A stretch of DNA of 64,000 nucleotides from Clostridium vincentii (GTDB lineage Bacteria > Bacillota > Clostridia > Clostridiales > Clostridiaceae), in assembly GCF_002995745.1 (NCBI RefSeq), contig NZ_PVXQ01000017.1, forward strand, positions 1-64,000, given 5' to 3'. Both the position numbers and the translations under genes were made by a program. Below the pieces are notes generated by a model, which searched no databases, was not told where the DNA came from, and worked only from the letters and a program-made list of their open reading frames with translations. This document shows, in pieces, positions 33,074-47,769 of the stretch (its first letter is position 1; each line of letters begins with the position of its first letter).

Positions 33074-33664
33074 CTATAACTTTCCTTTAGTAGATGGTAA
33101 TTGCATGTTATTTTCATCAATTTCTTTAGCTTCTCTAAGAGCTCTTCCTAATGCCTTAAATAAAGCCTCAACTTTATGATGATCATTTTCTCCATATAAA
33201 ACTCTACCATGTAATGTTATGCCCGAATTAAAAGCAAAAGCTCTAAAAAATTCCTTAACCATCTCGGTTGAAAAACTACCAATACTTTCTCTTGCAAAGC
33301 TACAATCAAATGCTAAAAAGCTTCTTCCACTAATATCTAAAGATACCTGTGCCAAAGTCTCATCCATTGGTATAAAGAATGTTCCATATCTTTTTATTCC
33401 TCTTTTATCTCCTAAAGCCTTTAAAACAGCTTCTCCTAAGGTTATTCCAACATCTTCAACTAAGTGATGATCACAAACTTCTATATCACCCTTAGCCTTT
33501 ACCTCTAAATCAAAACCCCCATGAAAAGCCATTAATGTTAACATATGATCAAAAAATCCTACTCCAGTATTAATATTGCTATTACCTTTTCCATCAAGAT
33601 TAATAGTTAAACTGATTTGGGTTTCCTTTGTTTCTCTAGTTATACTAGCAATTCTTTCTATCAT
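33074..33664 (-). CDS. hisB: Imidazoleglycerol-phosphate dehydratase
   Basis: A 196-residue single-function enzyme with the two metal-binding motifs [13 protein letters not shown] and [10 protein letters not shown], and the repeated [11 protein letters not shown]. There is no fused histidinol-phosphatase. Its ATG overlaps the last base of hisD. Confidence 0.95.
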
Positions 33665-34959
33665 TATTTCAACCTCACCTTGATTGAATTTGCATGAGCT
33701 GTAAGACCTTCTTTATTTGCTATATTTATAATTTTTTCGCCATCAGCCTTTATTGCTTCCTCTGAGTAATATAAAAAGGAGGATTTTTTTACAAAGCTAT
33801 CTACAGATAATGCTGAGAAGAATTTAGCAGTACCACTAGTAGGTAATACATGGTTTGTTCCTCCAAAATAATCTCCGATTGGCTCTGCTGTATTGTATCC
33901 TAAAAATACAGAGCCAGCATGTTTAACCTTTCCTAAAAGTTCCATAGAATTTGCAACCATAAGTTCTAAATGTTCTGGTGCAACCATATTTGAGATCTCT
34001 ATACATTCATCAATACTATTACAAATAATAACTTTTCCATGATTAATGAGAGATTCTTTAATTATTTCCTTTCTCTCCAAGGTTTGTATTTGCTTTTCAA
34101 TCTCTTTTTCTACTTCTTTATAGAGTTTTTCTGATGTAGTAACCAATATTGATGAGGCTAATACATCATGTTCAGCCTGGGACATTAAATCTGCTGCAAC
34201 ATAACTCGCATCTGCATTTTCATCTGCAATTATTAGTATTTCACTAGGTCCTGCGATCATATCAATATCTACTTTTCCAAATACAAGTTTCTTAGCTGTA
34301 GCTACAAAAATATTTCCAGGGCCAACTATCTTATCAACCTTTTTAATTGTTTCTGTTCCATATGCTAAAGCACCTATTGCCTGTGCTCCTCCTACCTTAT
34401 ATATCTTATCTATACCTGAAATTTTCGCAGCAACCCCAATATAAGGATTAATACCGCCATCTTTATCAGGAGGAGTTACCATAATAATTTCTTCAACTCC
34501 TGCAACTTTTGCTGGAATTACATTCATAAGAACTGAAGAGGGATATGCAGCTGTTCCCCCTGGGACATATACTCCCACAGTTTCAAGAGGTAAAACTCTT
34601 TGACCTAAAAACACTCCTCTTTCCTTATTTAATATAAATCCGTTCTTTACTTGTGCCTTATGATAAAATTCTATATTGTCTTTTGCTTCCTTTAAGTTAT
34701 TGATAAATTCCTTATCAACCTTGTTAACCTTGTTAAAGCATTCTTCAATTTCTTCTTTAGTAACCTGAAAGTTTTCTAGCTTAACCTTATCAAATTTTTC
34801 AGTATACTCTCTTAAGGCACTATCACCTCTTAATGAAACATCCCTTAGAACCTTAGAAACAGTTCCAATAATTTGTTCATTTGTGTCTTCTGCTCTATCC
34901 TTTAACTCTTTTAAAAGAAGTTCCATTCCTTCTTCTTCTAAGTTGAAAAGTTTTAACAT
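33664..34959 (-). CDS. hisD: Histidinol dehydrogenase
   Basis: A 431-residue zinc enzyme that oxidises histidinol to histidine with two NAD. It has [57 protein letters not shown] and the metal ligand segments EHLEL and [13 protein letters not shown]. It overlaps hisB by one base and lies 37 bases after hisG. Confidence 0.96.
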
Positions 34960-39921: not shown

Positions 39922-40476
39922 CTACATGCTTAAAAGAACAAGTGCTCCTTTTACTGAAACATGATGATTTTTCACAAAGTCTTTAGCATCGCATTTCTTT
40001 ATCTTAAACACTTCTATTTCCTCATCCTCTTCAGTATTATAATTTGTCATTTCACCCTCAACAACCATTTTTACTATAGCTGTAGTCTCATCAGTTAATC
40101 CTACTGATGAATAACTTGGTTTAAGAATAAGCTCATAGCTTTTCCCTCTTAATCCAGTTTCCTCGTATAATTCTCTTCTTGCAGCCTGTTCTATAGTCTC
40201 ACCCTTATCTATCATTCCAGCTGGAAGTTCATAAAGATAATCTGATATAGCAGGTCTATATTGTTTTAACATTACTATTTCATCATTCTCTGTAACTGGA
40301 ATTATCATAACTCCGTCACAAACGTCATGTTTCTTTGTATTACATGACATCTCTTCTCTTTTCCTCCTACTTGCTACATAGTAATCCTTTGGAGTACCCT
40401 TCTTATTTATTAATTTTAATTTGTACATATTTAAATATTCACTATTAGTTAGTTGAACAACATCTATTAATCTCAT
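39922..40476 (-). CDS. Nudix hydrolase, ADP-ribose pyrophosphatase type
   Basis: A 184-residue enzyme with an intact Nudix box (GMIDKGETIEQAARRELYEETGL, matching Gx5Ex7REUxEExGU). The upstream YRPAISDYLYELPAG segment is typical of ADP-sugar pyrophosphatases (NudF/YqkG). GGAGGAAAA precedes the ATG. Substrate specificity is not certain. Confidence 0.88.
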   Translation of the reverse strand: MRLIDVVQLTNSEYLNMYKLKLINKKGTPKDYYVASRRKREEMSCNTKKHDVCDGVMIIPVTENDEIVMLKQYRPAISDYLYELPAGMIDKGETIEQAARRELYEETGLRGKSYELILKPSYSSVGLTDETTAIVKMVVEGEMTNYNTEEDEEIEVFKIKKCDAKDFVKNHHVSVKGALVLLSM

Positions 40477-40726
40477 CGTAATTTTCCTCCGTGTATATAA
40501 TTTATTTACTATCTACATTATACTATATTATAATCAATTGACAGGAATATATCTAAATTTAAGAATTTGTTAATGTTTAATCGCTAATAAGTATCTTCTT
40601 TGTTCATTTTAACATACTATATTTGATTGAGGTCTAGTAAAGGTGTAAAATAGAACCAGATTAAAATACTGTTAAAAATAAAAACAATATAATTATGATT
40701 TTATATGTAGAAAGGATGATTTTATA

Positions 40727-41311
40727 ATGAATGACATTTTGAATAATATTATAGCTCGTAGAAGTATACGTTCTTATAGCACTAAACAAATACCTGATGT
40801 ATCCCTTGCTGACCTCATCAATGCTGGCATCTATGCACCAAGTGGAGGTAATTCTCAGTCCAGAATTTTTACAGTACTGCAAAAAACTAATCTTCTTGAA
40901 GATCTTAATGAAGCTGTTAAAGAAGCATTTTTAAATATGAATGTTGACAAAATGACTTATAAATCAAAGATATCAGGTAAACAAGCCTCCATAGATCCAA
41001 GATATAGCTTTTACTATTATGCACCTACTTTAATAATCGTATCTAACGACAGGAAATATTCTAATGCCATGGCAGATTGCTCTGTCGCTCTTGAAAATAT
41101 TTTTCTTGTTGCCCATTCATTAGATTTAGGTTCATGTTGGATTAATCAATTAGCTTGGTTTTGTGATGAACCAAAAGTCAGAATGATACTAACTGAACTA
41201 GGTATACCAAAGAATTATATAGTCTGCGGCTCAGCTTCTATTGGATATTCTTCAGGTAATATACCACATGCTAGATCTAAAAAAGAAGGAACTGTGGATA
41301 TCATTAAATAG
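40727..41311 (+). CDS. Nitroreductase-family flavoprotein
   Basis: A 194-residue FMN-dependent oxidoreductase beginning ARRSIRSYSTKQIPD, with the flavin-contact APSGGNSQS motif and a C-terminal GYSSG segment. The substrate cannot be predicted; many such enzymes reduce quinones or nitro compounds. AAAGGATGA precedes the ATG. Its end overlaps the convergent dprA-like gene by 8 bases. Confidence 0.85.
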   Translation: MNDILNNIIARRSIRSYSTKQIPDVSLADLINAGIYAPSGGNSQSRIFTVLQKTNLLEDLNEAVKEAFLNMNVDKMTYKSKISGKQASIDPRYSFYYYAPTLIIVSNDRKYSNAMADCSVALENIFLVAHSLDLGSCWINQLAWFCDEPKVRMILTELGIPKNYIVCGSASIGYSSGNIPHARSKKEGTVDIIK

Positions 41312-42242
41312 TTTGAGTGAAGTCCTTCTCAAAGGACTCCTCAATAAATTTCTTTCCACCTATCTTTATTAATTCTAAATTCCCCTTTGGTACATTTTCA
41401 TCAAATCTAACCAATGTTGGAGTCCATTGATTTTGTAGATTTTCAGCAGCGCCTGTCCAAGTTTCACCTTTATTATAATCTGCTGAAACTACAACCGTAA
41501 GCTCTGACAAACCATAAATATACTTATTTCTATCCATAGCTGAGTATACTGAAATTCCACTTCTAGGATTACTATCACTCATAAGTAAAAGATTTCCTTT
41601 AACTATATCCTCTCTTACTTCTTTCTTTTTTATTCTATTTATCATGCTATCTCCTATAAATTGTACTACTTTACCATTGTTTTTTAACACCTGAACCTGT
41701 GAAACACTGTCCACACCATCTGCATTTCCACATATCAAAGAATATTTATCCTTAACTATTTTGTCAGCTAACTGCTTAGTAAATTCTATATCATATTCAT
41801 CTACAGATTTCAAACCAACTACTCCAACTAAATTATTGCACAAAATTTCTATATTGCCACAATAATATATCATTGGTGGACACTTCTGTTTAAGTCGTTC
41901 TCTTAGAATTTTCGGATAAGTTTTATCTGCTCTTGTAGTTATATTAATACCTAATTTTTTTAGTTCATTTAATTCAAAAGTTAATTGCCCAGCCTTTGAT
42001 AATAACTTTATAATTCTCTCACTTTCCTTTTCTTCAATAAGAAGTTCTTTTTCAATTTGTTCTTTTGATAGATTAAATAAATTTGATGGTTCCTTAATTG
42101 AAGAACTCCATATTATTTTTGCAAGTTTACTCCATTCAACCATAGTAAATGGTTTTATCGTATCAACTTTATGATTTATTGCCAAATTACTACATAATAA
42201 TATTATTGCTAAACTATTATTATTAAATTCCTCGTTATTCAA
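41304..42242 (-). CDS. DprA-like Rossmann-fold (SLOG) protein
   Basis: The 312-residue protein has a helical N-terminal part (1-100) and a DprA/Smf-like Rossmann domain (about 105-290). Family segments are recognisable but altered: YPKILRERLKQKCPPMIYYCG, VGVVGLKSVDEYD in place of VGSRxxSxYG, LICGNADGVDSVSQ in place of SGLARGIDAAAH, and YIYGLSELTVVVSA. It is therefore divergent from housekeeping DprA and lacks its winged-helix tail. A TTG start at 42242 follows GGAGGGG. It adjoins the upstream RecQ-PRTase stop, so the two are coupled. Confidence 0.8.
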   Translation of the reverse strand: MNNEEFNNNSLAIILLCSNLAINHKVDTIKPFTMVEWSKLAKIIWSSSIKEPSNLFNLSKEQIEKELLIEEKESERIIKLLSKAGQLTFELNELKKLGINITTRADKTYPKILRERLKQKCPPMIYYCGNIEILCNNLVGVVGLKSVDEYDIEFTKQLADKIVKDKYSLICGNADGVDSVSQVQVLKNNGKVVQFIGDSMINRIKKKEVREDIVKGNLLLMSDSNPRSGISVYSAMDRNKYIYGLSELTVVVSADYNKGETWTGAAENLQNQWTPTLVRFDENVPKGNLELIKIGGKKFIEESFEKDFTQTI

Positions 42243-44333
42243 TTAGTCATCCCCTCCGCCATTAGTTGTAGCTGCTAGTGCATATGGAAATATTCTGCTT
42301 GCTCCATTTATATTTAATAAAAAGCCACAAACAGTTAATGTCCAACTAGAGTCAACAATATCATCTATTAGCAACACATTTTCATATTTAACTGTTCCAT
42401 TAACCTTAAAGCCATTATAAGCATTTTTGCTCTGCATATTTGTATTTTCCATAGTTTTTTGTTTCGGAGTTTCTATAGGTTTTGTTATCATATCTATGAA
42501 AGGTACTTCTAAAGCTTCCGCGACTCTTATAGCAAAAGATTTAACCACTACAGGTCTTCTTAAGGACGGAACTGCTGCAACACAATCTATATGTTCTAAT
42601 TCCTTCCACCTATTCTTTATCAAGTCTATACTAGCTTTAACTAATTCATCACAAAAATATTCATTTTTATCTCTATTATCTTCAACAAGTTTCCCAAATT
42701 TAGAGCTTCCAAAATACGATAACGCTCTCCCCGGTTCATTTAATTCTTGTTTTAACATATTCTTTGCACTGTTAGCTACAGTTCCTGCTGGCCACTGCTT
42801 TCTAACTTTTATTTTTATTGATCTACTTCTACTAAAGATTTCTGCTTGTTTTAATAGATCCGTATTTACATTACTGTTAAAATACTCTTTTCCTATGCAA
42901 TTACAACACTTTCCGCATTCTTTACAAGTATTATCATCTAGCTCATTAGCAATGAATTTCATGTAACATTTATCTGTATCGGTATATTTCTCCATAAGCT
43001 GGAGCTCTTTATATCTAGTTTCTAGAATTTGTTCTACATTAAAGTCATCGTAATCATATGGATGTAGTGTTCTAATATACTTTGATTTCACCTTTGCAAC
43101 AACATTATGCAAATCAAGTAATTTTAAGCACTTTTCTATACTGCTATTACTTGTATTCATAACTTTTCTTAAGTCATATGAACTCAGTCCCTCTTTAGAG
43201 TTTTCTATAAAATCCAGCACTTTCTCTAATTGTTCTCTCTTAGGCGAACCGTTATTTATAAAATACTCTGCAATTTCTCTATCTTCTTTACCTACTAAAA
43301 GGATAGCATAGGCATCTTTTAGTTTCCTCCCAGCTCTTCCTATTTCTTGATAATATCTTATTATATTTTGAGGCATTTGAAAATGTATAACAAATGATAA
43401 ATCTCCTTTATCAAATCCCATTCCTAATGCTACTGTAGATACCAATGCTTTTACTTTATTTTCTATTAATAACTTTTCCCGTTCTTCTCTTAAAATTCTT
43501 GCTTCATTCCTATCCGAAGATAGCTTTGCATGATATGGCAATGCATTAATATTATTTTCTTGTAACCAATCGGAAATTCTATTACAATCTCTAGTAGTTG
43601 AGCAGTATATAATTCCAGATCCCTCTATCTTAATTATATTTTCTGCAATCCAAGCCATTCGTTCCCCTTGAGTTGGCAATTTTATCACCTGTATATTCAA
43701 AGATTCTCTCATTAATGAGCCTTTAATTATCTTAATATCATCTCCAAGTTGTCTTTTAATATCATCAACAACCCTATTATTAGCAGTTGCCGTTGTAGCT
43801 ATTACAGGTATATTAGGAGGTAATGTTCTTATAATTTCAACTATTCTACTGTAATCTGGTCTAAAGTCATGCCCCCAATCTGATATACAATGAGCCTCAT
43901 CTATAACTATCATATTAGGACCATCCTTTATTGCCGGTATAATCCTATTAATAAATTTTTTATTTGCTAATCTTTCTGGTGCTATTAAAACAATCTCACA
44001 TTCACCGTTAATTAAAGTTGACTCAATTTCTTCCCAATCATCTTCATTTTCACTATTTATAGTAACAGCTCGTATTCCTATTTTTTTCGCAGTTTCTATT
44101 TGATTTCTCATAAGAGATAATAGAGGACTAACTAAAATCGTTATACCCCCACGCCTTTCCTTTAACATTTTAGCTGCAATAAAATATACAATACTTTTGC
44201 CCCATCCAGTTCTTTGTACTACTAAGGTTCGCTTACTATCCAAAGCCGATTCAATTGCCTCATATTGACCATCATGAAAAATGGAATTATGTCCTAGCAT
44301 ATCTTTTAAAAGCTCTTCACATCTATCTCTCAT
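42243..44333 (-). CDS. RecQ-type helicase fused to a phosphoribosyltransferase domain
   Basis: A 696-residue fusion. The RecQ helicase core spans about 1-345: Walker A RTGWGKS (41-47), DEAH at 145-148 with the aromatic loop CISDWGHDFRPDY, ATTATA, and QEIGRAGR (329-336). A zinc-like Cys cluster lies at 456-479. The C-terminal 560-690 is a type I PRTase domain with PRPP loop VLLIDDIVDSSWTL (653-666) and AAVPSLRRPVV, similar to ComF-like domains. Walker A has Trp where RecQ usually has Gly. It is coupled to the dprA-like gene. Function unknown; see findings. Confidence 0.88.
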   Translation of the reverse strand: MRDRCEELLKDMLGHNSIFHDGQYEAIESALDSKRTLVVQRTGWGKSIVYFIAAKMLKERRGGITILVSPLLSLMRNQIETAKKIGIRAVTINSENEDDWEEIESTLINGECEIVLIAPERLANKKFINRIIPAIKDGPNMIVIDEAHCISDWGHDFRPDYSRIVEIIRTLPPNIPVIATTATANNRVVDDIKRQLGDDIKIIKGSLMRESLNIQVIKLPTQGERMAWIAENIIKIEGSGIIYCSTTRDCNRISDWLQENNINALPYHAKLSSDRNEARILREEREKLLIENKVKALVSTVALGMGFDKGDLSFVIHFQMPQNIIRYYQEIGRAGRKLKDAYAILLVGKEDREIAEYFINNGSPKREQLEKVLDFIENSKEGLSSYDLRKVMNTSNSSIEKCLKLLDLHNVVAKVKSKYIRTLHPYDYDDFNVEQILETRYKELQLMEKYTDTDKCYMKFIANELDDNTCKECGKCCNCIGKEYFNSNVNTDLLKQAEIFSRSRSIKIKVRKQWPAGTVANSAKNMLKQELNEPGRALSYFGSSKFGKLVEDNRDKNEYFCDELVKASIDLIKNRWKELEHIDCVAAVPSLRRPVVVKSFAIRVAEALEVPFIDMITKPIETPKQKTMENTNMQSKNAYNGFKVNGTVKYENVLLIDDIVDSSWTLTVCGFLLNINGASRIFPYALAATTNGGGDD

Positions 44334-44499
44334 AAACTATCTCCTTTATTATAAAATGACTTATTGTGTTTTCCTTATTAAATTCTTATTTTTTTATTAT
44401 TATAACCACTAACTGCTATACTTTTTCATTTTATTGATTATAATTATATATAAGAATATTTTTATTATTTATTTAATAAAATTTAGGGGGTCAAATTTC

Positions 44500-44721
44500 A
44501 TGACTACTGGTAAAAAACTATATAAAATTAAGAATGAAGGAAAAATATTAGGTGTTTGTGCAGGTGTTGCTGAATACCTTGGAGCAGATGTCACATTAAT
44601 TAGAATTCTATGGGTTTTAGCTGTTTGTGCTTTAGGTACAGGTATAGCTTTATACATAATTGCTGCATTGATTATGCCTGACAAAAGCGATATATTTAAT
44701 AATCCAAATAATTTTCAATAA
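44500..44721 (+). CDS. PspC-domain membrane protein
   Basis: A 73-residue protein with the PspC signature (KLYKIKNEGKILGVCAGVAE, YLGADVTLIRILWV) and a membrane helix (VLAVCALGTGIALYIIAALIMP). Such proteins are linked to envelope stress in other bacteria. TAGGGGG precedes the ATG at 44500; the open frame upstream has no ribosome site. Confidence 0.85.
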   Translation: MTTGKKLYKIKNEGKILGVCAGVAEYLGADVTLIRILWVLAVCALGTGIALYIIAALIMPDKSDIFNNPNNFQ

Positions 44722-44733
44722 ATTTAACATTTT

Positions 44734-44767
44734 GGAAGCGAATTTATAATTTGCTTCCTTTTTTTTA
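44734..44767 (+). terminator. Terminator after the pspC-like gene
   Basis: GGAAGC (44734-44739) extended into AAATT pairs with GCTTCC (44753-44758), followed by a run of about nine T residues. Confidence 0.85.
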
Positions 44768-44881
44768 TGTTGATACTTATATTTATAATGGTACAATAAA
44801 AAGCGACGATATTTTTTTGCAATTTTTTATTAATTATCCACCAAATTATATTAATTATAAATTAAAAATGGAGGACATATA

Positions 44882-45475
44882 ATGCTAAAAAATCATAACA
44901 AACAAATTTTTGGAGTTAGACAATTAACTACAATTGGAATGTTATCTGGAATATCTATTTTTATGGGACTTACAGGATTAGGATTTATTCCTCTTCCTTT
45001 TATGAAAGCTACTATAATGCATATCCCAGTTATTATTGGTGCTATCATAGAAGGTCCTATAGTAGGTGCTACAGTTGGATTAGTATTTGGTCTTTTTTCA
45101 ATTTACCAAAACATTACTGCCCCAACTCTTTTATCTCCTGTTTTTATGAATCCTATAGTTGCGATTATTCCAAGACTATTAATAGGAATTACTTCATACT
45201 ATATTTATAAATTTATAAAGAATAGATTCAACACTCCAAAAATTGCCTTTGGCTTTGCTGCTGTAGTTGGTACTATTACCAACACTGTCGGAGTTTTAGG
45301 ACTTACTTATTTGGTTTTTGCTGAACAATATGCATCTTTAAAGGATATAAGCTCTAGCTCTGTTGCTGGTATATTAGGAACTATAGCTTTAACTAACGGC
45401 GTTCCTGAATGTATAATATCTGTTATCATAATAGTTCCTGTTGTTACTAGGCTAACAAAATTTTTGAAAAAATAG
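44882..45475 (+). CDS. ECF transporter S component
   Basis: A 197-residue membrane protein with six predicted helices and the N-terminal pattern of vitamin-binding S subunits (TTIGMLSGISIFMGLTG, PVIIGAIIEGPIVGATVGLVFG). It would work with a shared EcfAA'T energising module encoded elsewhere. No riboswitch is seen in the 110 bases upstream, so the vitamin (pantothenate, folate or other) is unknown. GGAGGACATATA precedes the ATG. Confidence 0.82.
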   Translation: MLKNHNKQIFGVRQLTTIGMLSGISIFMGLTGLGFIPLPFMKATIMHIPVIIGAIIEGPIVGATVGLVFGLFSIYQNITAPTLLSPVFMNPIVAIIPRLLIGITSYYIYKFIKNRFNTPKIAFGFAAVVGTITNTVGVLGLTYLVFAEQYASLKDISSSSVAGILGTIALTNGVPECIISVIIIVPVVTRLTKFLKK

Positions 45476-46958: not shown

Positions 46959-47363
46959 TTATTTTTCTATATTCAACTCTTTTTTCAAAGCTTTTACTAA
47001 CACACTGGAGAAATTTATATTATGATTTTTTGCTAATATATCTAACCAACTTGGAATAGTTAAAGTCTTCTTAACATAAGTGTCTTTTACTCTACCTCTA
47101 AAATATGGCATCCATACATTTAGATACAATAATTTTTCATTATCTTTTAGTTCTATTTTAAAAATCTGAGTTGAACTTGGTAGTTCTATTTTTTTACTTT
47201 CATAACTTATTATTGTTCTAGATAGAATTTCCATTGCATATTCAACAGCATCCTTTTCTTTTTCTACAAAGGAATAACATTCTTCAAAATCTACAGCTCT
47301 TATTTTAACTTCATCCTCTGAATATGTAAAAATCATAGGATAATTATAAGTATCTTTTAACAT
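46959..47363 (-). CDS. HicB-like regulator without a HicA partner
   Basis: A protein of 134 residues. It has an N-terminal degraded-RNase-H-like HicB domain (YNYPMIFTYSEDEVKIRAVDFEEC) and a C-terminal ribbon-helix-helix/HTH part (LYLNVWMPYFRG, LTIPSWLDILAKNHNINFSS). The start at 47363 follows GAGGTGCTAAAA. HicB is normally the antitoxin and autorepressor of HicA, but no HicA-like ORF is found near. An inverted repeat sits in the promoter spacer. Confidence 0.75.
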   Translation of the reverse strand: MLKDTYNYPMIFTYSEDEVKIRAVDFEECYSFVEKEKDAVEYAMEILSRTIISYESKKIELPSSTQIFKIELKDNEKLLYLNVWMPYFRGRVKDTYVKKTLTIPSWLDILAKNHNINFSSVLVKALKKELNIEK

Positions 47364-47398
47364 TTTTAGCACCTCTTATTTTTTATACATTTACCATA

Positions 47399-47417
47399 AC
47401 ACGTACAATGTACGTGT
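47399..47417 (-). promoter_or_regulatory. Operator-like repeat of HicB-like gene 1
   Basis: ACACGT-N7-ACGTGT (with a longer perfect arm ACACGTAC/GTACGTGT) lies between a TTGCAA -35 and a weak -10. The same arms with the same 7-base spacing occur ahead of gene 2. Confidence 0.65.
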
Positions 47418-47453
47418 TGCAATAATTTTCTAAAAATAAGATTTTTGTTTTAC

Positions 47454-47732
47454 CTAATCTCTATTTCTAAAATATGGCATCCAAGCATTTACATACAATA
47501 ATTTTTCATTCTCTTTTAATTCTATATTAGAAATATCAGTTGTGCTTGGTAGTTTTTTCTTTTTCTTTTCATAATCCATTATTGACTCCGATAGTAAATC
47601 CATTGCAGCTTGTATTTGATCCTTTTCTCCCTCTACAGATGTAGAACATTCTTCGAAATCTACAGCTCTTATCTTTACTTCTTTGTCTAAATATGTGAAT
47701 ATCATTGGATAGTTGTAATTGTCTTTTACCAT
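47454..47732 (-). pseudogene. HicB-like gene 2, truncated
   Basis: Strongly similar to the adjacent gene over its first 92 residues (MVKDNYNYPMIFTYLDKEVK, YVNAWMPYFRNR). It stops right after that segment, so the C-terminal DNA-binding part (about 35 residues in the neighbour) is missing. GGAGATGGT precedes the ATG at 47732. The truncation lies where the promoter of the intact copy begins, as expected for a tandem duplication that lost the 3' end. A shortened protein may still be made. Confidence 0.7.
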
Positions 47733-47769
47733 TTGTACCATCTCCTAATTTACTTATACTCTTATTGTA

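What the first reader, a model, noticed from the sequence alone, without database searches (positions are those of the whole stretch)
41304..44333. Two-gene unit: RecQ helicase fused to a phosphoribosyltransferase, plus a divergent DprA-like protein
The helicase core, a Cys cluster and a C-terminal PRPP-type domain are in one polypeptide. A DprA/SLOG protein with altered signature motifs follows it immediately with coupled translation. In competence, helicase, PRTase-like and DprA functions are separate proteins (ComFA, ComFC, DprA) that handle incoming single-stranded DNA. Joining them here without other competence genes suggests a self-contained module, possibly for defence against foreign DNA or for nucleotide signalling. 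I recall that SLOG and PRTase domains have been proposed as parts of nucleotide-centred conflict systems, but I cannot verify a match. The PRPP loop DDIVDSSWTL is intact, so the domain may bind a nucleotide or PRPP.
Basis: partly seen in the sequence, partly recalled or inferred. Interest (0 to 1): 0.8.

Follow-up and report, generated by a model that had tools for sequence, protein, structure and literature searches.

The report
Known toxin-antitoxin pair, rewritten variant
A Clostridium-type bacterium carries a known two-gene toxin-antitoxin system of the anti-virus kind, but here both proteins have changed at sites that hardly ever change in their relatives, so the pair may be switched off or working in a new way.

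Summary
On the minus strand, 42243-44333 encodes a 696-aa RecQ-type helicase fused to a phosphoribosyltransferase (PRTase); 41304-42242 encodes a 312-aa DprA/SLOG protein starting right after the first stop codon. The pair is not new in kind: it is PsyrTA (= RqlHI), a toxin-antitoxin system filed with anti-phage systems (PADLOC PsyrT 885 bits, PsyrA 289 bits). It is accessory: full-length PsyrT occurs in 3 of 68 same-genus genomes; in the other two it sits inside a type I restriction operon and a BREX locus. The genome has a separate housekeeping DprA.

New here: the 'altered signature motifs' are real and nearly unique. Of 118 PsyrA homologues found, only this one and one 92%-identical relative have a rewritten SLOG pocket (GSR to GLK, SGGA[K/R] to CGNAD, GG to GE). 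The window's toxin has also changed at 6 of 16 near-invariant PRTase N-lobe sites against 1 of 128 in the helicase. I infer an attenuated or re-tuned PsyrTA; decay is the main rival. The predicted antitoxin fold matches DprA and ShosA. No toxin structure and no activity test was obtained.

The parts
42243..44333 (-). psyrT / rqlH-like gene: RecQ-type helicase fused to a C-terminal phosphoribosyltransferase domain (toxin), 696 aa
   Evidence: PADLOC PsyrT 8.5e-267, residues 3-691 on profile 6-686 of 689
41304..42242 (-). psyrA / rqlI-like gene: DprA/SLOG antitoxin, 312 aa, no C-terminal HTH
   Evidence: PADLOC PsyrA 1.7e-86 on profile 2-302 of 398; predicted fold DprA/ShosA
43254..44333 (-). 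helicase core of PsyrT (residues 1-360), including TGWGKS (44193-44210) and DEAH (43890-43901); 1 of 128 near-invariant columns changed
42897..42968 (-). Cys cluster of PsyrT (C456, C473, C476, C479)
   Evidence: invariant in alignment A2 of 50 sequences
42246..42809 (-). PRTase domain of PsyrT (residues 509-696; left boundary approximate, after the numbering of E. coli RqlH)
42669..42713 (-). rewritten PRTase N-lobe loop (residues 541-555): family YGDxGWG...KY, here FGSSKFG...RD
42336..42365 (-). PRPP loop DDIVDSSWTL (residues 657-666), intact
41358..41963 (-). DNA_processg_A (SLOG/Rossmann) domain of PsyrA
41808..41816 (-). rewritten SLOG motif 1: GSR to GLK (residues 143-145), in the loop after predicted strand 138-142
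41718..41732 (-). rewritten SLOG motif 2: SGGA[K/R] to CGNAD (residues 171-175), at the end of and after predicted strand 168-171
41463..41465 (-). rewritten SLOG motif 3: GG to GE (residue 260), at the start of predicted helix 259-271
42251..42257 (-). Shine-Dalgarno-like GGAGGGG in the 3' end of psyrT, ahead of the TTG start of psyrA
40727..41311 (+). nitroreductase-family gene, convergent, overlapping the last bases of psyrA; not at this site in G008, G058 or G038

Best explanation
The unit is a PsyrTA (RqlHI) toxin-antitoxin module in an accessory chromosomal site. Likely mechanism, taken over from characterised relatives: PsyrT is a RecQ-type helicase that engages aberrant or replicating DNA and carries a PRTase effector; PsyrA binds PsyrT and holds the PRTase in check; when the balance is upset, for example by phage replication, the PRTase acts on nucleotide metabolism or DNA, causing DNA damage and growth arrest. 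Shown for relatives: toxicity depends on the PRTase, RqlI counters it, and the two proteins bind. Inferred here: that this pair does the same. In this lineage the antitoxin's SLOG pocket and the toxin's PRTase N-lobe are both rewritten and the antitoxin has no C-terminal HTH; I infer an attenuated or re-tuned toxin whose antitoxin is no longer under the usual pocket constraint (about 0.5 that activity is lowered, about 0.3 that it is changed in kind or in its inhibitory contact).
Against: No assay of this pair was found or made. PsyrTA of E. coli NILS69 gave no detectable protection when expressed in K-12, only a growth defect (PMC12409345, passages; the outcome of its deletion was not in the passages seen); loss of rqlHI gave no fitness defect in the tests of PMC4670107, whose authors also list points that make RqlHI an untypical toxin-antitoxin system. 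Of 9 window neighbours scanned, none matches a named defence system; the Nudix gene matches a candidate family weakly (PDC-S07, 1.6e-8). The joint change is a single case in one lineage; among the other 35 pairs the two regions do not covary (rho 0.03). The partner toxin of P0002 could not be read. The total number of PRTase N-lobe changes since the split from the sister is equal (11 against 10); only the near-invariant ones are skewed. C-terminal loss is common in PsyrA (29 of 118 are 360 aa or shorter).
Confidence: 0.8

Rival explanations
1. A decaying module: the toxin's PRTase lost activity, the antitoxin is drifting, and both are on the way to loss or to a helicase-only remnant.
For: Antitoxin changes since the split from the sister pair are 36 against 14; six near-invariant PRTase N-lobe sites are changed; the antitoxin has no C-terminal HTH; two Rhodococcus plasmid relatives without PsyrA have no alignable PRTase at all.
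Against: Both reading frames are open; the helicase is as conserved as in the sister (18 against 22 changes); the PRPP loop is intact; PsyrA differences between window and P0002 still favour variable columns, weakly (26 differences, mean entropy 1.93 against 1.57 bits, p 0.0255).
Confidence: 0.35
2. A re-tuned module: the toxin's substrate or the toxin-antitoxin contact has shifted, and the SLOG pocket and PRTase N-lobe changed to match each other.
For: Changes sit in loops of both partners that are otherwise near-invariant, and are absent from the sister pair; in the antitoxin model they lie at the strand ends where SLOG proteins bind ligands (inference from the order of elements); P0002 shares the antitoxin changes at 92% identity, so they have persisted.
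Against: Only one lineage; no covariation elsewhere; no structure of the complex or of the toxin; the P0002 partner toxin could not be read.
Confidence: 0.25
3. A housekeeping DNA repair or recombination pair (RecQ and DprA orthologues).
For: RecQ and DprA folds; recQ_fam subfamily cut-off passed.
Against: Separate DprA in the genome and two further RecQ-type genes; dprA and recQ equivalog cut-offs missed; 3 of 68 congeners only.
Confidence: 0.03

Closest known systems
PsyrTA / RqlHI toxin-antitoxin system (RqlHI: Russell and Mulvey 2015, PMC4670107)
   Same: Same domain order in both proteins, same gene order, full-length profile matches.
   Different: SLOG pocket and PRTase N-lobe rewritten; antitoxin 312 aa without the C-terminal HTH of the 400-aa RqlI (its 1-320 truncation was still active).
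ShosTA (PRTase toxin and DprA-like antitoxin, phage defence)
   Different: By the papers' descriptions ShosT is a PRTase, with no fused helicase mentioned; the window's antitoxin is far closer to PsyrA (289 against 79 bits).
Orphan RqlH (actinobacterial type, first described in M. smegmatis)
   Same: Helicase-PRTase fusion.
   Different: No PsyrA within the 3 kb or so held on either side and a divergent PRTase; the window has both genes.
ComFA/ComFC/DprA competence proteins
   Same: Similar domains spread over separate proteins.
   Different: ComF model scores 22.9 bits against a cut-off of 233.55; here the PRTase is fused to a RecQ-type helicase in an accessory operon.

Membership tests
PsyrTA / RqlHI | RecQ-type helicase fused to a C-terminal PRTase over full length | tested here: met
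   PsyrT 8.5e-267, 3-691 of 696 on 6-686 of 689
PsyrTA / RqlHI | DprA-like partner immediately downstream | tested here: met
   PsyrA 1.7e-86; gap 0 nt
PsyrTA / RqlHI | PRPP-binding motif DIVD needed for toxicity | tested here: met
   DDIVDSS present; need shown in RqlH D663A and DIVD663EVME mutants
PsyrTA / RqlHI | conserved PRTase N-lobe YGDxGWG...KY (feature found here, not a published criterion, so not used to exclude membership) | tested here: not met
   FGSSKFG...RD
PsyrTA / RqlHI | SLOG motifs GSR and SGGA[K/R] (general DprA/SLOG motifs, not a published criterion for PsyrA) | tested here: not met
   GLK and CGNAD; in the other homologues aligned S144 in 108 of 114, R145 114 of 114, S171 114 of 115, G173 112 of 115, K/R175 115 of 115
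PsyrTA / RqlHI | toxicity of PsyrT alone and rescue by PsyrA | not testable with these tools
   needs expression in a laboratory strain
ShosTA | best antitoxin profile is ShosA; toxin is a PRTase without helicase | tested here: not met
   PsyrA 289 bits against ShosA 79; toxin has a helicase
Housekeeping DprA | NCBIfam dprA equivalog cut-off 191.15 | tested here: not met
   85.5 bits; another DprA in the genome
Housekeeping RecQ | NCBIfam recQ equivalog cut-off 640.2 | tested here: not met
   324.7 bits
DpdF (Dpd system) | NCBIfam DpdF cut-off 550 | tested here: not met
   173.3 bits
Anti-phage defence system | protection against phage | not testable with these tools
   only genomic association here

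The most novel reading that the evidence does not exclude
This lineage caught a PsyrTA module in transition: the SLOG pocket of the antitoxin and the PRTase N-lobe of the toxin are functionally tied (by contact or by a shared nucleotide or DNA ligand), and when the toxin's loop changed the antitoxin's pocket was released with it. A like step, loss of the conserved lysine (K554) of the PRTase N-lobe, would explain why many actinobacterial RqlH proteins exist without any antitoxin, a puzzle left open in 2015.
Probability: 0.2. Interest if true: 0.6.

Novelty: new variant of a known kind. Interest (0 to 1): 0.42.

Why it matters
The 2015 RqlHI paper reported that nearly all Gram-positive carriers have RqlH alone, and that no major sequence difference set these RqlH proteins apart. 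Here 8 of 8 genomes of the window's phylum found with full-length PsyrT have PsyrA next door; the 8 loci seen without PsyrA are actinobacterial plasmid records (7) and one archaeal plasmid. The lysine K554 of the PRTase N-lobe is kept in 12 of 12 other paired loci (with the following tyrosine in 10 of 12) and in 0 of 6 unpaired loci that still have a PRTase, though these are at most two independent lineages. The window's pair is a natural variant at these sites, so it is a ready test of which parts of the PRTase and of the SLOG pocket make the toxin harmful and the antitoxin work. If it proves to be mere decay, the value is limited to a corrected distribution.

Tried and rejected
Housekeeping DprA/RecQ, DpdF and competence readings were tested and rejected. 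Mobile-element borders: repeats and inverted repeats in 40400-44900 gave only weak AT-rich matches, none of which I take for an att pair; G+C of the segment is like its surroundings. Promoter-like sites were 41 against 28.3 expected (sd 6.4), not informative in this AT-rich DNA. PsyrT in annotated phages: 5 records, helicase part only; in viral contigs, of the 50 loci returned only L056 and L057 matched over essentially the full length; L057 ends right after PsyrT, so a partner could not be seen and it was left out of the paired/unpaired count. The one scan of genome contigs with PsyrT returned 1 locus, matched in the helicase part only. Of five relatives fetched for the site comparison, G008, G058 and G038 kept both flanks; G039 and G035 kept only the ECF side and say nothing about the site. 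Defence genes next to the window's pair: none named among 9 neighbours. A general covariation of SLOG and PRTase N-lobe across pairs was looked for and not found. Structure: the PsyrA model came after many looks and was compared with PDB; the PsyrT job was never accepted, so the toxin and the complex have no model. I saw no coordinates, only secondary structure. The ShosTA mechanism paper (Pu et al. 2025) is not held; I use one review passage.
Full report
Observation. The stop codon of the first is followed directly by the start of the second, and GGAGGGG lies upstream. Pfam finds the helicase domains and the DprA/SLOG domain above their cut-offs and the PRTase below its cut-off (the isolated last 200 residues score 23.6 bits against 26.3). 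The base composition of the segment is like that of its surroundings. The genus is taken to be Clostridium: the contig of G067, a same-genus genome (187,970 bases), has the length of the contig of P0016, named Clostridium weizhouense; the species of the window is not known.

Identity. PADLOC names the pair PsyrT (8.5e-267 over the full length) and PsyrA (1.7e-86); ShosA is second for the antitoxin. The RqlHI paper calls PsyrT and PsyrA of P. syringae the orthologues of RqlH and RqlI and says PsyrT is toxic without PsyrA (passage); a 2022 paper groups shosTA, syrTA and rqlHI as systems with DprA-like antitoxins. In the RqlHI work (abstract, sections 11, 12, 15 and part 1 of section 16) RqlH alone provokes SOS and filamentation, the PRTase domain and its PRPP-binding residues are needed for toxicity but the PRTase domain alone does not suffice, helicase-dead RqlH is still harmful, RqlI counters the toxicity and binds RqlH, and the RqlI HTH is dispensable. 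A DprA plus PRTase pair protects against T7 and lambda (PMC9122126, passages); a review says that ShosT disturbs purine metabolism and ShosA binds DNA (PMC12593503, passage; the original paper was not held). The helicase-PRTase-DprA combination had been noted as a response that invasive DNA could trigger (PMC5512222, passages). Against a defence role: PsyrTA of E. coli NILS69 gave no detectable protection when expressed in K-12, only a growth defect (PMC12409345, passages).

Not the housekeeping genes. The genome (3.5 Mb, 99 contigs) has another DprA with 266 bits to the Pfam model against 113 for the window's. The NCBIfam equivalog cut-offs for dprA, recQ and DpdF are missed. Two other RecQ-type genes are present in the genome.

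Distribution. Of 68 same-genus genomes 66 match the PsyrT profile at 1e-40, but only 3 over the full length (the window's own, G019 and G067, 884-908 bits); the other matches score 381 bits or less and stop at or before profile position 375 of 689. At 1e-140, 5 of 398 genomes of the phylum sample and 3 of 391 of the class sample have it, own genome included, the samples overlapping. That makes 8 distinct genomes with full-length PsyrT; in all 8 PsyrA is directly downstream. This differs from the 2015 statement that 99.6% of Gram-positive carriers have RqlH only, which may reflect the many actinobacteria and the 75% coverage rule; that reason is my inference. In E. coli, DNA near that of the PsyrTA pair of plasmid NZ_OX030731.1 occurs in 53 of 5426 genomes.

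Context. In G067 PsyrTA follows genes matching type I restriction enzyme, Fic, type I methylase and specificity subunit. In G019 it lies between a protein matching PADLOC Orf5/HEC-06 (DUF262-like, recalled) and a Fic protein, within BrxC, PglX, PglZ and BrxL. An E. coli plasmid has it inside a type I restriction operon and an Acinetobacter plasmid between pglX and a DUF262 gene. A viral contig (L056) has it between an oligonucleotide cyclase/phospholipase pair with a WYL protein and a type I methylase. So 5 of 13 paired loci, the window included, are in or beside named defence systems. For the other 8 neighbours were scanned only in part: L109 has a candidate family (PDC-M45B, 1.5e-51), L111 Leo-type matches (1.4e-27), L108 weak ones; the annotations around L045 and L046 name no such system. 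In the window itself the flanks are ordinary: Nudix (with a weak candidate match, PDC-S07, 1.6e-8), nitroreductase, PspC, an ECF transporter component. The stretch between Nudix and PspC/ECF is a variable site: in 3 of 5 relatives fetched both flanks are kept, and of these G008 and G058 have a PD-(D/E)XK nuclease gene there and G038 has no ORF of 60 aa or more between the Nudix and ECF genes; the window's genome gave no match to that nuclease (an empty answer without a positive control).

The altered motifs. A search with PsyrA gave 118 proteins, the window's included. At GSR, SGGA[K/R] and GG the window's GLK, CGNAD and GE are shared only by P0002 (92% identity, same length 312). In the others aligned, S144 is kept in 108 of 114, R145 in 114 of 114, S171 in 114 of 115, G173 in 112 of 115, K/R175 in 115 of 115, F230 in 116 of 116, G260 in 116 of 116. 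On an alignment of 114 of the 118 (four short or distant proteins dropped) the window differs at 6 of 46 columns conserved at 95% or more, all in the SLOG region; P0002 differs at 8, one very distant protein (P0115) at 10, no other at more than 4, and the median is 0. Both P0001 and P0002 stop at ...DFTQTI where most relatives run on into a linker and HTH; 29 of 118 are 360 aa or shorter, so that loss is not special.

The toxin side. Against 119 other listed PsyrT-type proteins (the 120 best of 7943 scored) the window's protein differs at 9 of 187 near-invariant columns, the highest count, tied with P0170. Seven of the nine fall in the PRTase, which has 41 of the 187 (hypergeometric 0.0004); six fall in its N-lobe, which has 16 (1e-5; sub-region chosen after seeing the list); one is in the helicase (128 columns). 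The family loop YGDxGWG...KY reads FGSSKFG...RD; the PRPP loop is intact. Against the sister pair P0003/P0120 (78% and 76% identical, canonical motifs, paired only by equal contig length; P0120 is 809 aa long), unique changes are 36 against 14 in PsyrA and 59 against 50 in PsyrT; in the helicase 18 against 22, in the PRTase 27 against 15 (p 0.09), in its N-lobe 11 against 10, in its C-terminal part 16 against 5 (p 0.03). So in the N-lobe the excess is in near-invariant sites, not in the total.

Paired and unpaired toxins. In 12 other loci with PsyrA next door (L003, L005, L041-L048, L055, L056; in L046 PsyrA is in two reading frames) K554 is present in 12 of 12, D543 in 12, G545 in 11, Y555 in 10. 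In 8 loci without PsyrA in the stretch held (L049-L054, L106, L107) the PRTase is not alignable in 2; in the other 6 K554 is present in 0, D543 in 5 and G545 in 5. The seven actinobacterial ones form one clade (support 1.0) and the archaeon is separate, so this is at most two independent cases. D543 and G545, lost in the window, are mostly kept in the unpaired ones, so the window is not simply of that type.

Interpretation. Membership in PsyrTA is secure by sequence and layout; function as a toxin-antitoxin pair is inferred from relatives; anti-phage function is inferred from genomic company and from ShosTA. The new element is that both partners are rewritten at otherwise near-invariant sites in one lineage, which I read as attenuation or re-tuning; plain decay is the main rival.

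On print: searches for PsyrTA, RqlH/RqlI, ShosTA and their parts listed no paper whose title or shown abstract deals with such a variant; only the passages and sections cited were read.

Noticed in passing
window 33074-34959: The histidine operon has no hisC between hisB-like and hisD-like genes, where the syntenic locus of G008 has an ORF (L035 3476-4528) that I take for hisC; the own genome has only distant relatives of it (best 31% identity). Gene names are from recall and synteny.
   Followed up: partly
window 46959-47741: Two adjacent, related ORFs (137 and 95 aa) that look like HicB-type antitoxins without a HicA partner (resemblance recalled; no Pfam match; no HicA search was made).
   Followed up: no
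L109 3990-8813: In G302 a 1607-aa protein upstream of PsyrTA matches RecQ-type helicase profiles at about 243-640 and UvrD/GajB-type helicase profiles at about 1046-1490, an unusual double-helicase protein.
   Followed up: no
L111 4318-8145: In G117 a 1275-aa protein with LeoA/LeoBC matches (1.4e-27) follows PsyrTA.
   Followed up: no
L049 2914-5049: A plasmid of the archaeon Halanaeroarchaeum sulfurireducens carries a full-length helicase-PRTase without PsyrA in the stretch held, with a changed PPi loop and PRPP loop.
   Followed up: partly
L035 11275-12216, L037 5544-6464: A PD-(D/E)XK nuclease with Cas4-like matches occupies the window's PsyrTA site in two relatives.
   Followed up: partly
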